From the NCBI RefSeq assembly GCF_964204645.1, contig NC_134025.1, positions 26,566,001 to 26,630,000 of the forward strand: a stretch of 64,000 nt of DNA, in the 5' to 3' direction. The first letter of the stretch is position 1, and every line of letters starts with the position of its first letter. The notes below the pieces were generated by a model that worked only from the letters and a program-made list of their open reading frames with translations, was not told the DNA's origin and made no database searches. Shown here piece by piece: positions 1-15,441 of this stretch. The position numbers and the translations under genes were made by a program. Source of the stretch: Tubulanus polymorphus. Lineage: Eukaryota > Nemertea > Palaeonemertea > Tubulaniformes > Tubulanidae.

Positions 1-3000
1 GTTGTTGCCGTAATCGGCGGTTGTTGCTCCAACGTTTTGTAAATTAACAGTGAATTTGTAGTTAATTGCTGCACGATCGTTTAGTTTTTCACCACCGGTG
101 ACTGGTCCTAGCGCCGATAGACTCGTGATTTCGACATCTACAATTCAAAGGAATATAATACACCGCTCATCAGTAATGCCTGTTTCAAAATTCGACGGAA
201 AGCTAAATCAAACAAGGATAACGTTGGAGGAGAATTTGATAGTACTGAATAATTGATAATTTTACCTGGGAAACATGTTTTCTGCGCAACTATATTGCTG
301 CATTTGTAATTGTTGTTTGAATTAACATCTGTGTACGTTGCGCCAGTTCCTTCTTGCGTTCTAGCGCAAATAAATTTGATTTTGTTGCAGTCTACTGAAT
401 CCGGCATCGTAATAGAACTTGTTCCCGCAAAATTACCTGAAGCAGGCAACAATGCATTGGCGCTTCCTAATGCATCCGCTTTATTGATAGTGGTTGTTGA
501 AACTACGGAAACTGTGGCAGTCGCACCTGTGCTTAAATCAACGTCCGTCAAAGTCAATGTGATGTTGAAATTAACATTACCCGCAGAAGCAGCTGTTATG
601 ATTGAGTTTCCACCGGGTGCTATATTTTGTAAAATGACATCAAATCCTGAGGTTGGAACATTAACTGATCTTACAAACGTGTCTGTTGGTGCCGTAAATG
701 AATTCACAATTGGATCTGAAAATTATATTTGTAGAATGGAAGATGCATCTACATCAATCAACATATCAAATTCTTTGAAAATGAATAAATAATAACCTAA
801 TTTAGGGCTTACCTGGATTACAACCTTTGACAGACACTACTGTAGAACAGGAAACGTTATTAGTTAACACATTGTCGACCCATTTTGGACCAGTTCCTGG
901 TTTTATTCGGCCACAAAGATAATCGGCCTGAGGACAATTAGCTGTAGGAAGTGTCACAGTTGCTGATGCTCGGATCGTTACAGATGTTGTCCCACTATCA
1001 GCCGGTAAAGCTGCCTGATCATTTGTACTGACGGTTGCAGCAAAATTACTTGTTAATGACGAAGATCCACTACTATCAGACGCAAAGTATAGTTCAAATG
1101 CATAATTTTTGTCCCCAAGTGTGGCAGCAAGAATATCGTTGCCCAGTCCTGTCGGAGCCGTATTGAGTATAATGGCATCGAATGTGACTGTAGTAGATGA
1201 GCCTTGTGGAATACTTGTTAGTCCTACCCAAGATGGGTTGCTAGGTGCTGGTGCCTTCCACGTTGGATCTGAATAAAGGAATGAACGTTAGTGTGAGACT
1301 ATTCATTCGTTTTACATAGATTAGAATGTTTATTCAACTTATAGGAAATTACATGCTTTAAGGTAATACGTACCTGGCTTGCACATTCGTTGCGTTGTTT
1401 GGCAAAACTTATTGTCAGTTGTCACGGCATCAACAAACGAAGCTCCTGTACCTGCCTGCACCTCTACACACACATGTGTCACTCGAGGACAAGTATAATC
1501 GGTCAACGCTGGGAAATCAACGGTAGCTCCTGTGAAGGTGTGAGTCGTTGTGGCCGCTATACCAACCTGGCGTTTTGCGACAGTCAGTCCACTTATTGTA
1601 AGCGTCGATATGACTGAGAATGACCCCGGTGTAACTTCCTGTTCGTAAGTGTATGTAAATACGTAGTTTTCATTCGTTCCTGTTACTGCGGCAATATTGT
1701 CCGTTGTAGCAGCATTCTGGACGTCTATTTGCAGGGCAACCCCAGTTTGAACCACACCCAGAGTGAGTTCCGGTGGAGTTGTGAACGTTGGTAATTTAAT
1801 ATCTGCAAGATTTACTCAAAACAAATAGTGACGATTGATGATGATACAGGTCTGGATATTATGCAAATAGATTTACTTACTTATCGCACAACTCACTCTA
1901 TCCTTGATGTATATACAGCACCAATCGTTTGGAGTAAGGTTAATGAACCCAGTTACGGTCCCTTGTCCAATTCCTGCGCATAGATAGTTTGTTCTGTCAC
2001 ATTTAGCAGAGTCAACGTTGATGTTTGTACTTCCACTAAGAGTGTAAGTCTGGCCATAATTCAAACCAACTTTCAGATCATTAGGCCCAGAGGTAACTGG
2101 AACGAGCGGAGATGCTAGAGAATCCGAAGCGATTCCAACAGCTCGTACGTCATACTGGGTCAGTCTCAAATCGATGGCAAAATTAGTATCTGCAAGTATT
2201 CAACAATATTTATGAGGTTTGGTTGATTTATATTCTCGATTTGATCTTGTAAGATTTTATGGTGAATACCAGCTGTTCCCACAGTTGTTGCTATATCTTG
2301 GGCTGGTGGATCAGGTCCTATATGTTTTATCGTAGCCGTGAATGTTATCGCACTAGTAGATCCGCTATTATAAATTGGACTGCTATCATCTGCAAAACTT
2401 GTACAATTCCAATCTGAAAAAAGTAGAAAATGAATTTCGTTGTTGTTGAATTTCTACTGCCGAATTTTCTTATTTCGTATACAAACCTGCTGTACAAGCT
2501 TTCAAATTCGCAAGACTTTGACATTTAACATTATTCGTCTGAACATCATCGGTGAATTTTGCATTAGTACCAGCCGTTACATTAACACATATGAATGAAG
2601 CTGCCTTGCAAATGGCGCTTGGGATTTGGTAATTCACGATCGCATCTAGGTTAGAATTGCCACCAGCTGCTAGCGCAGACTGTCTTTCCGAAGCCGTTGG
2701 GTAGGAAATAACTGGGCTAGCGACAGTATTTGAGAGCGTGTTGGGGCTGCCTGTTGTAACGTCTACATCAGATACAAATGCACTAACGTCAAAATTATAG
2801 TTGCCAGTCCCAGTAATTGCGATAATGTTATTGCCATAATCCGCAGTAGTTGGTGCGACGTTTTTCAAATTCAATGCTAATTTCAAATCAATAGCTGCAT
2901 TGTCGTTAATAAGTTGTCCTGTAGTCACAGCAGTGGGTGTAAAAGTAAACACTTCCACATCTGCCAAATAAAAGCATGATTAGAATTTCACTTCCATTTT

Positions 3001-13800: not shown

Positions 13801-15441
13801 GTGATAAAACGGTTCGATGAAGCTATTGAGAATGTTTTTACTATAGGATCTGAAATACATAGTCCATTAGAACAACTATATATATATATATATATATATA
13901 TATATATATATATATATATATATATATATATATATATATATATATATATATATATATATATATATATATATATATATATATATATATATATATATATATA
14001 TATATATATATATATATATATATATATATATATATATATATATATATATATATATATATATATATATATATATAACATTGTCTTTGTCTTAGGTGAAGAC
14101 ACTTACCAGGTGTACATAGCTTATCTGCTACAGCTGATATATCTTTACATTGGCCATTATTTGTAGTGTCAGCTTCAGTCGCAAAATTGGCGTTTGTACT
14201 TCGAGAGACAGTTGCACATAAATACAGCGCATTCGCACATTTAGCCGGGTCAATCGTTATACTCATGACGATATCAACGATCGACGTAGTTGCCTGAGCT
14301 GCCAAAGCTGTTTGTCTTTGCGCTGGTGTCGTATATGATGAAATAGATATTGCAGAATGTCCAAGAGTATTACTTCCACCAGCATCGGCATTAGAGATGG
14401 TAACTACGATATCGTAGTTGTATTCGGACCCAGTCGTAGCGAGGATATTATTTCCGTAGTAAGCTGCCGTATTTACTGCGTTATTTTTTAGGTTTATTGT
14501 GATCTTATAGTTTGTGGCAATTGCATCATTCAATGTTCCTGATACTGGAGCCCCCATAATAGATGTCATTTGTAAATCTGTAAAGGAAACCAGAAGCCTA
14601 TGAACATATCTTTTAAGGTTTCATACAATATATATTTTCTAGTATTGAATATGATTTTAGAACATACCAGGGAAGCAGGATTTCTTAGCTGATATATCGA
14701 CGCAATTGCAGTTGTTTGTAAGGTCTCCGTCTGTGTATGACGCGGTTCCAGGAACGTTTAACTTTGCACAGACATATCTTACATTGTTGCAGTCATTTGT
14801 AACCGATGGCACTGCGATAGAGACACTGCCCGATATTGTCGTGCTGGACGCTGCAGCAACCAAACCAATTATTTGGTCAACATCCGAAGTAGACGAAATC
14901 GAGACAGAACCCGCAGTACAAGTTATCATGTCAATGTCAGACAGAATTACATCTACTTTGAAGTTAGAGTTAGGACCTGTTACTGCGGTTATATCGGTCC
15001 CCCCTACATTTTCAAAGATTACATCAAACGTCAAAGAGAATGCGTTGGGTTGAATGTACACTGCCGTGTTAAGTGGAGTGAAGGTCTTGATTATTGGATC
15101 TGAAATGGAAAATTATTGTGTAAAGTACTTTATAACAAGAAAATTATGATCAAAACAAAATGCCTCCATAAAGTGAGCATATACAAACTACATCAAATTT
15201 TATGGATTAGCGTGCGTGAAATGACAAAAAGCGTGTGTTTAAGATTGGGCTTTATTTGGGTACTGTAGCTTACCATCTTATAATAATGGGCGCATTATCT
15301 GTAGGCGTTTAATGAGGAAAGAATGTTTGAAACGCTGTGTATAATCTCGGAGTAATCAGCCTGATTACTCCAAGGTGTATTACCTGTGCCAACGACCATT
15401 CCCAATAATGATAGAAAGATCCATAATATTCTTGAATCCAT
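7828..15441 (-). CDS. Secreted multidomain protein, 12 tandem Cys-containing domains (repeat gene 1)
   Basis: Unrecognised family. Exons, 5' to 3': signal peptide 15384-15441; A1 14668-15099; B1 14107-14577; C1 13415-13849; D1 12748-13233; A2 12218-12658; B2 11616-12092; C2 11105-11539; D2 10506-10991; A3 9978-10418; D3 9094-9579; A4 8552-8992; B3 7959-8435; tail 7828-7868. Every domain exon is a multiple of three (432-486 nt) with GT-AG borders in phase 1, so the frame stays open for about 1868 residues. The first exon encodes a hydrophobic leader ([19 protein letters not shown]). Each domain has a hydrophobic strand ending in N (such as FDVIFEN), a strand like FKVDLILSD, then C-x6-C, an Asn-Asn pair, and C-x(7-11)-C-x-[PA]-G at the exon end. 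A and C domains have two further Cys. The pattern resembles an Ig-like/CARDB beta sandwich, which is inference. The domain exons are secure. The 41-nt last exon, ending in TGA, is a weaker call. Confidence 0.85.
9094..10418 (-). repeat. Higher-order repeat unit 3, collapsed (A3, exon relic, D3)
   Basis: This copy keeps A3 and D3, but full B and C exons are missing between them. A short exon-end relic lies at 9807-9859. The following unit 4 (7959-8992) keeps only A4 and B3 before the gene ends. Confidence 0.7.
9807..9859 (-). pseudogene. Relic of the 3' end of an A/C-type domain exon
   Basis: The minus strand reads [18 protein letters not shown] in one open stretch and then an intact splice donor (G|GTATAT). 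It matches the end of A/C exons (NNCKCVDIS...KSCFPG). The remaining 380 bases or so of the exon are absent, and no acceptor-flanked exon body can be traced upstream. I read it as a truncated exon left when B and C of unit 3 were lost. Confidence 0.6.
10506..12658 (-). repeat. Higher-order repeat unit 2 (exons A2-B2-C2-D2)
   Basis: Second complete A-B-C-D block, in the same order and orientation as unit 1. The A exons of units 1, 2 and 3 begin at 15099, 12658 and 10418, giving a period of about 2.2-2.4 kb. Its C2 and D2 exons are strikingly close to C3 and D4 of the neighbouring gene. Confidence 0.75.
12748..15099 (-). repeat. Higher-order repeat unit 1 (exons A1-B1-C1-D1)
   Basis: First complete copy of the four-exon block. 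It is expanded by the (AT)n run between B1 and C1. Its B exon shares long identical stretches with B2 (for example the start of the Cys pair, [11 protein letters not shown]), and D1 resembles D3 more than D2. Confidence 0.75.
13878..14073. repeat. (AT)n microsatellite, about 196 bases
   Basis: An uninterrupted TA dinucleotide run in the intron between exons B1 and C1. Open frames across it (Tyr-Ile repeats on both strands) are artefacts of the repeat. Confidence 0.97.

What the first reader, a model, noticed from the sequence alone, without database searches (positions are those of the whole stretch)
1..15441. Two neighbouring genes built almost entirely from one duplicated exon: an undescribed secreted repeat-domain family
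Seen: 27 complete exons plus a cut one, each close to one domain long, each divisible by three with phase-1 borders, on one strand. Shared signature: C-x6-C, Asn-Asn, C-x(7-11)-C-x-[PA]-G at the exon end. Nine domain classes (A-I) can be told apart. I do not recognise the family. Symmetric phase allows any number of domains to be added, lost or skipped without breaking the frame, so the locus is suited to rapid copy-number change and to splice diversity.
Basis: partly seen in the sequence, partly recalled or inferred. Interest (0 to 1): 0.85.

Follow-up and report, generated by a model that had tools for sequence, protein, structure and literature searches.

The report
Giant cadherin receptors with repeated domains
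These are the front ends of very large cell-surface adhesion-type proteins of an animal, in which an unclassified building block is stacked many times on top of ordinary cadherin repeats; the architecture looks new, the general kind does not.

Summary
The exons are real and as described, but the window cuts the gene and hides its end. Left of the window the same strand continues with cadherin repeats (Pfam Cadherin, E 4e-45), a juxtamembrane region, a hydrophobic helix and a short tail. Joined in frame, the minus-strand exons give one open protein of 4801 aa, or 2965 aa from the internal signal exon. So the protein is most likely a membrane-anchored cadherin-superfamily receptor, not a secreted one. 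The repeated domain (about 140-160 aa, four invariant cysteines, confident mostly-beta model) reaches no Pfam cut-off in 23 of 23 window domains, and its profile finds only noise in the PDB. A mirror-image unit lies to the left; together they hold 62 single-exon domains plus two split ones, mostly copies of a four-domain unit. The arms seem to have exchanged sequence: blocks of 84-98% identity stand in a background of mostly 54-68%. Four further loci on the same contig, with few N-terminal domains, have the same plan. Domains are under purifying selection (class medians of dN/dS 0.07-0.37). The host looks lophotrochozoan by its Hox genes. Function (long-reach adhesion or recognition, two promoter-defined lengths) is inferred. 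No eukaryotic protein collection was at hand, so 'undescribed' stays provisional.

The parts
15384..15441 (-). signal-peptide exon 1 ([19 protein letters not shown]), phase-1 donor; start of the long form
7959..15099 (-). array 1: twelve single-exon repeat domains in the order A C K D A C K D A D A C (exons 15099-14668, 14577-14107, 13849-13415, 13233-12748, 12658-12218, 12092-11616, 11539-11105, 10991-10506, 10418-9978, 9579-9094, 8992-8552, 8435-7959)
7253..7310 (-). internal signal-peptide exon 2 (MAFLFLWISLFLSRIVSGQ), phase-1 donor; start of the short form
2487..7151 (-). array 2, first part: eight single-exon repeat domains F G A C K D L N (7151-6735, 6647-6207, 6088-5648, 5338-4862, 4605-4168, 4064-3585, 3497-3051, 2960-2487)
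1881..2413 (-). repeat domain I, split over two exons (2413-2270 and 2189-1881)
266..1802 (-). repeat domains E, H, M (1802-1374, 1268-813, 715-266)
1..137 (-). last repeat domain O, cut by the window edge; it continues outside to contig C1:26565661 and is followed there by cadherin, juxtamembrane, hydrophobic-helix and tail exons down to about C1:26561512
9805..9849 (-). relic of a repeat-exon 3' end ([15 protein letters not shown]) where the third unit of array 1 lacks its C and K exons
4785..4817 (-). relic of a class C exon 3' end (SVAADKTCTPG) between a class C and a class K exon
7378..7385 (-). TATAAAAG upstream of signal exon 2; a possible internal promoter, untested

Best explanation
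Each arm of the locus encodes a giant single-pass membrane protein. A signal peptide is followed by a long tandem array of an unclassified, cysteine-bearing, roughly 150-residue beta domain (25 in the long minus-arm form, 13 in the short form), then about six cadherin repeats, a conserved juxtamembrane region, a hydrophobic helix and a short tail. I infer that the array is a long extracellular rod that carries the binding surface, and that the cadherin part is the membrane-near stalk, so that the protein acts as a long-reach adhesion or recognition receptor. Two signal exons per arm, each followed by an array but sharing one anchor, suggest two promoters that yield a long and a short version of the same receptor. 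Arrays grow and shrink by unequal exchange of a four-exon unit (A-C-K-D), and the inverted arms homogenise each other in patches. Shown: exon anatomy, in-frame joining, cadherin repeats, a predicted membrane helix, purifying selection, patchy identity. Inferred: splicing, promoter use, disulphides, rod shape, adhesion, the mechanism of exchange.
For: In-frame join of all minus-arm exons to 4801 and 2965 aa, each with one terminal stop; in the long form the two strongest hydrophobic stretches lie at the N-terminus and near the C-terminus. Pfam Cadherin in the C-terminal part, E 4.1e-45, 6 stretches; in locus B E 8.9e-34, 4 stretches. One-exon pieces of L053 and L054 also pass the Cadherin cut-off (38.8 and 38.3 against 28.8 bits). 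Same plan read by eye in the + arm, loci A and B, L053 and L054. Juxtamembrane matches at eight places on C1 with E 1e-9 or better, the query itself and one short fragment included. dN/dS class medians 0.07-0.37 in 12 of 12 classes, six of which rest on a single pair. Mirror arm with the same order of end domains. Identity blocks of 84-98% in a background of mostly 54-68%, introns included. Two AF2 models of different classes, mean pLDDT 84.4 and 82.5, share most strands and a short helix before the second-last strand.
Against: No transcript, so no junction is proven; in particular the join of array 1 to array 2 and the use of two promoters are untested. A weaker hydrophobic window (1.63) also passes my threshold inside array 1; I take it for a buried strand. 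Upstream sequences of the four signal exons share only short matches near chance level (best E 0.008). A one-exon piece of the + arm scores 27.1 bits, just under the Cadherin cut-off of 28.8, and one of locus A only 14.7 against Cadherin_4 (cut-off 25.1), so cadherin in locus A rests on the eye. Cadherin linkers in the middle repeats lack the full calcium motif by eye, and no binding partner is known. I joined only the minus arm end to end. The second AF2 model lacks one listed strand of the first and has a stretch (83-87) under pLDDT 50.
Confidence: 0.62

Rival explanations
1. Array 1 is a gene of its own that ends by reading into its last intron or by a small unseen end exon, so it makes a secreted protein beside an anchored one from array 2.
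For: Reading on through the last donor of array 1 meets a stop after about 23 codons in the minus arm; the minus arm holds three A[AT]TAAA hexamers before signal exon 2.
Against: The + arm has no such hexamer in the same place (weak, since about one is expected by chance, my estimate). The arms leave only 648 and 514 bases between the last exon of array 1 and the ATG of signal exon 2, with no family-like exon seen by eye, and all phases fit splicing onward.
Confidence: 0.2
2. A self/non-self or immune receptor of high diversity (allorecognition-like), diversified by array change and exchange between arms.
For: Tandem arrays, inverted pair, apparent sequence exchange between arms, unit number differing among arrays.
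Against: Replacement change is constrained in every class; the highest pair has dN/dS 0.37. No population data. Nothing in the sequence says immune.
Confidence: 0.12
3. The repeated domain is a far-diverged member of a known Ig-like beta-sandwich family such as CARDB, so it is not a new fold.
For: Strand order and the conserved N-N near the C-terminus recall CARDB (resemblance from memory); the best local profile overlap, 13 columns, falls where it should, but without significance.
Against: The CARDB model finds 0 places in this genome while it rings in 7 of 14 control genomes. Profile comparison with 11 prokaryotic domains, 11 of 11 of which match CARDB in Pfam: probability 0.2%, E 0.27; with the family's own distant members on the other side 1.5%, E 0.033. 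The same method joins the family's own distant members at 99.3%, E 1e-20. No window domain lists CARDB in Pfam.
Confidence: 0.35
4. A structural extracellular-matrix or cuticle component, with the array as a scaffold rather than a binding part.
For: Long uniform cysteine-bearing arrays under purifying selection.
Against: A membrane helix and cadherin-like stalk in the loci read (L053 is cut within the helix).
Confidence: 0.08

Closest known systems
Atypical cadherins with extra extracellular domains (hedgling, lefftyrin, coherin; recalled; papers that name them seen in a search listing only)
   Same: Cadherin repeats combined with other extracellular domains; single membrane helix.
   Different: Here the extra part is a tandem array of one unclassified domain: 13 or 25 in the minus arm, up to 39 in the + arm if it joins likewise (not joined here). 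Pfam names no added domain in what I scanned.
Chelicerate shortened Dscam with tandem 5' cassettes (PMC4835542; abstract and the section on Mesobuthus read)
   Same: Tandem 5' exon units, of two or four exons, in front of a shared 3' part; several starts.
   Different: sDscam cassettes encode Ig domains and start near each cassette. Here only two signal exons serve an arm and the units look built to be used in series; the domain differs.
Vertebrate clustered protocadherins (recalled; promoter choice stated in the abstract of PMC4835542)
   Same: Cadherin superfamily, cluster, promoter choice in front of a shared 3' end (here inferred).
   Different: Variable exons there encode whole cadherin ectodomains (recalled); here the variable part is not cadherin and the cadherin part is shared.
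Cadherin-23 / protocadherin-15 with a membrane-adjacent domain (recalled; listing only)
   Same: Conserved non-cadherin region between the last repeat and the membrane.
   Different: No sequence match: the juxtamembrane profile finds only noise in the PDB and the region has no Pfam hit.
CARDB domain proteins (Pfam PF07705)
   Same: Similar strand order, tandem use, N-N near the C-terminus (resemblance from memory).
   Different: No sequence support in three kinds of test (and Pfam scans 11, 60, 93, 94).

Membership tests
Cadherin superfamily | tandem cadherin repeats (PF00028) | tested here: met
   E 4.1e-45 with 6 stretches (minus arm), E 8.9e-34 with 4 stretches (locus B); single pieces of L053 and L054 over the cut-off, + arm piece 27.1 against 28.8 bits, locus A piece no PF00028 match
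Cadherin superfamily | calcium-binding linker motifs between repeats | tested here: inconclusive
   by eye NVNDE, NINDN and DSNDP are present, but NVQEP and NVPEA in the middle are degenerate; no profile for linkers run
Cadherin superfamily | single-pass membrane protein with signal peptide | tested here: met
   hydropathy only: N-terminal stretch and C-terminal stretch IVMGMGISSSLALFLGILA in the joined model, plus one weak internal window
Classical cadherins | catenin-binding tail | not tested
   no Pfam hit other than cadherin families in the scan of the minus-arm C-terminal part with its tail, not examined further
CARDB (PF07705) | match to the family profile | tested here: not met
   0 matches in the genome at E <= 10; not listed for any of 23 window domains; profile-profile probability 0.2%
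sDscam / clustered protocadherin type of locus | each 5' unit has its own start and is spliced to a constant 3' part | tested here: inconclusive
   two signal exons per arm and one shared 3' end; no transcript
sDscam | Ig and fibronectin III domains | tested here: not met
   no Ig or FN3 family in the domains and C-terminal parts scanned; only Fibulin_C, an Ig-like model, appears weakly, under its cut-off, in cadherin repeats of locus B and L054

The most novel reading that the evidence does not exclude
A lophotrochozoan class of recognition receptors in which a new extracellular domain family, multiplied in four-domain super-units and kept alike by exchange between two inverted arms, is mounted on cadherin stalks, with two promoters that set the reach of the receptor: a third way, beside Dscam splicing and protocadherin promoter choice, to vary a cell-surface label.
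Probability: 0.15. Interest if true: 0.8.

Novelty: new variant of a known kind. Interest (0 to 1): 0.52.

Why it matters
It adds an unclassified extracellular domain to the cadherin superfamily and a locus in which array growth, loss and apparent exchange between inverted arms can be read from the exons. If transcripts confirm two starts with one anchor, receptor length would be set by promoter choice, which is testable. It also warns that a window edge can turn a membrane protein into an apparent secreted one.

Tried and rejected
Pfam, NCBIfam and PDB sequence searches with single domains, the 23-domain profile and distant members gave nothing above cut-offs. The best weak name is DUF5901 (E 0.00079, 18.8 against 26.4 bits, one of 23 members); DUF5649 appears in 2 of 23, MBG_3 in one. 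They were not followed.

A CARDB origin, suggested by eye, was tested in three ways and not supported by sequence; a control with the family's own distant members worked. A cadherin origin of the repeated domain was likewise not supported; the profiles are small.

Naming the species: a try through acetylcholine-binding proteins of the PDB led nowhere and was dropped. 'Lophotrochozoan' rests on ten Hox homeodomains, whose Lox5/Lox4/Lox2/Post2 signatures I name from memory.

A shared promoter motif before the four signal exons: only short matches near chance. A count of all cadherin repeats in the genome was not obtained: the machine did not answer.

Literature: nine searches showed no paper on such a family among the titles and abstract starts listed; most lists were capped at 8-15 papers, and most subscription journals are not in the library.
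Full report
WHAT WAS CHECKED. The window is C1:26566001-26630000 of a 267.8 Mb genome in 77 contigs. A scan of the minus strand for exons with a GT donor after C-x-[PA]-G and an AG acceptor gave 26 rows, of which three are false donors inside larger exons, leaving 23 one-domain exons. The cysteine/(N/D/S)-N signature holds in 62 of 62 single-exon domains of the two arms, with N-N in 60 of 62; the spacing between the last two cysteines is 8 in 45, 10 in 12 and 6 in 5. 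The 23 window domains share eight invariant columns: three Asn, one Ile and four Cys. Of the 62 domains, 36 hold four cysteines, 4 hold five and 22 hold six.

ONE CORRECTION OF THE MOTIF. The split codon gives Asp at 25 of 26 junctions of the long minus model and at 14 of 14 of the first + array, Asn at one. The linker is C-x-[PA]-D.

WHAT THE WINDOW HIDES. I fetched the 40 kb to the left. After the cut exon the same strand goes on with exons for cadherin repeats, a juxtamembrane region, a hydrophobic helix and a tail that ends in ..GYIPMDNW. All minus-arm exons of the model join in frame: 4801 aa from the first signal exon, 2965 aa from the internal one, one stop each. Pfam finds Cadherin in the C-terminal part at E 4.1e-45 with six stretches. 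Hydropathy gives a strong stretch at each end and one weak window inside array 1. So the product is most likely anchored, not secreted.

THE MIRROR ARM. Further left, on the + strand, lies a second unit with the same kind of end: F G (ACKD)x3, a second signal exon, F G (ACKD)x4 L N I E H M O. The minus arm reads A C K D A C K D A D A C, a second signal exon, F G A C K D L N I E H M O. The class letters are mine. The two units point at each other. A protein search with one domain gave 65 matches: 59 in this cluster, five at C1:855-858 kb and one at C1:29.28 Mb.

HOW THE ARRAYS EVOLVE. Most domains are copies of a four-exon unit; the four arrays hold 2, 1, 3 and 4 full units. Relics of exon ends lie where the third minus unit lacks C and K, and between a C and a K exon. 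In the tree, end domains L, H, M and O pair across the arms; E and N do not form clean pairs, and the bootstrap had not settled. Synonymous divergence between the arms is patchy: L 0.14, N 1.33, E 0.74, H 0.13, M 0.09, O 0.19, one pair each. In a windowed alignment of the 3' parts, one block of about 0.75 kb (91-94%) and one of about 2.2 kb (84-98%), introns included, stand in a background that is mostly 54-68% but holds single windows up to 83% and down to 46% (unwindowed). Exchange between the arms (gene conversion) is the simplest reading; I ran no formal conversion test. Domains evolve under constraint: class medians of dN/dS 0.07-0.37 in 12 of 12 classes; six of them have one pair only, and the split domain was left out.

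THE FAMILY. A juxtamembrane query gave 12 matches at E <= 10, eight of them at E 1e-9 or better, all eight on contig C1, the query itself included. A domain of locus A gave 73 matches at E <= 1, all on C1. C1:236 kb holds a 97% copy of most of the gene at 840-848 kb (not fetched) and C1:446 kb a 0.8 kb fragment at 99%. Loci A, B, L053 and L054 show, by eye, a handful of N-terminal domains, cadherin-like repeats, the juxtamembrane region and a hydrophobic helix, within which L053 is cut. Pfam Cadherin passes its cut-off in locus B and in one-exon pieces of L053 and L054; a piece of the + arm falls just short (27.1 against 28.8 bits) and a piece of locus A does not match it. Six domains of these loci (two of A, three of L053, one of L054) match the window family at 99.3% probability, E 1e-20. 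Of the loci read, only the 26.5 Mb pair has long arrays.

WHAT THE DOMAIN IS. No Pfam family reaches its cut-off in 23 of 23 window domains (overview) or in five further sequences, one of them a consensus of mine; NCBIfam gave nothing above a cut-off for three; the profile finds only noise among PDB sequences, best E 0.029. AF2 models of two classes: mean pLDDT 84.4 and 82.5, pTM 0.80 and 0.79. They share most strands and a short helix before the second-last strand; the second lacks one listed strand, has one more short helix, and a stretch under pLDDT 50. This looks like an Ig-type sandwich to me, but no structure comparison was made. CARDB, the best resemblance by eye, failed in the genome search (control positive in 7 of 14 genomes), in Pfam and in profile comparison. 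The CARDB sample was small: 11 sequences found with a query I made up, 11 of 11 of which match CARDB in Pfam.

HOW IT LIKELY WORKS. Shown by sequence: exon anatomy, open frame, cadherin repeats, a hydrophobic anchor, constraint, patchy identity. Inferred: that array 1 splices onto array 2; that two promoters set long and short forms (a TATAAAAG lies about 70 bases before the internal ATG; upstream regions of the four signal exons share nothing convincing); that the array is a rod with the binding surface; that the protein serves adhesion or recognition. The nearest known loci are sDscam cassettes (PMC4835542, abstract and one section read) and clustered protocadherins, which vary a receptor by choice of 5' part; here the two forms would differ in length.

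HOST. Ten Hox homeodomains lie on one strand over 316 kb. I read them as Hox1 to Post2 with Lox5, Lox4 and Lox2, thus a lophotrochozoan; these labels are from memory.

VERDICT. A real and unusual family of giant cadherin-superfamily proteins with an unclassified repeated domain. 'Secreted' falls, 'undescribed domain' stands provisionally, because no eukaryotic protein set could be searched here.

Noticed in passing
window 13877-14074: A perfect TA microsatellite of 99 units sits in the intron between a class C and a class K exon of array 1.
   Followed up: no
window 28948-29351: Tandem repeat of about 30 bases within 144-174 base units, open in several frames; looks like a satellite.
   Followed up: no
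window 18738-19817 (+): Exons of a phosphoprotein phosphatase; the first matches Metallophos (E 8.5e-20); PP1-like by eye.
   Followed up: partly
window 52466-55754 (+): Open frames of a gene with an OTU cysteine protease domain (E 3e-8 in the frame 53232-55022) and several short Cys motifs that recall A20-type zinc fingers.
   Followed up: partly
window 60614-61012 (-): Exon of an exonuclease/endonuclease/phosphatase family protein (E 1.3e-7).
   Followed up: no
window 61607-63118 (-): Long open frame of 503 aa rich in RGR motifs and acidic runs; no Pfam hit at E 0.001.
   Followed up: no
C1:236104-242332 (-) and C1:446160-446955 (+), against L053: A 97% copy of most of the family gene at C1:840-848 kb and a 0.8 kb fragment at 99%: recent duplications near the start of the same contig, or assembly doublets.
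   Followed up: partly
L053 bases 2594-2746 and 3911-3963: Short stretches of this locus match many places, mostly on C8 for the first and C10 for the second: they look like tandem satellites with steps of about 167 and about 40 bases.
   Followed up: no
contig C6:5318228-5634747: Ten Hox homeodomains in order on one strand in about 316 kb.
   Followed up: partly
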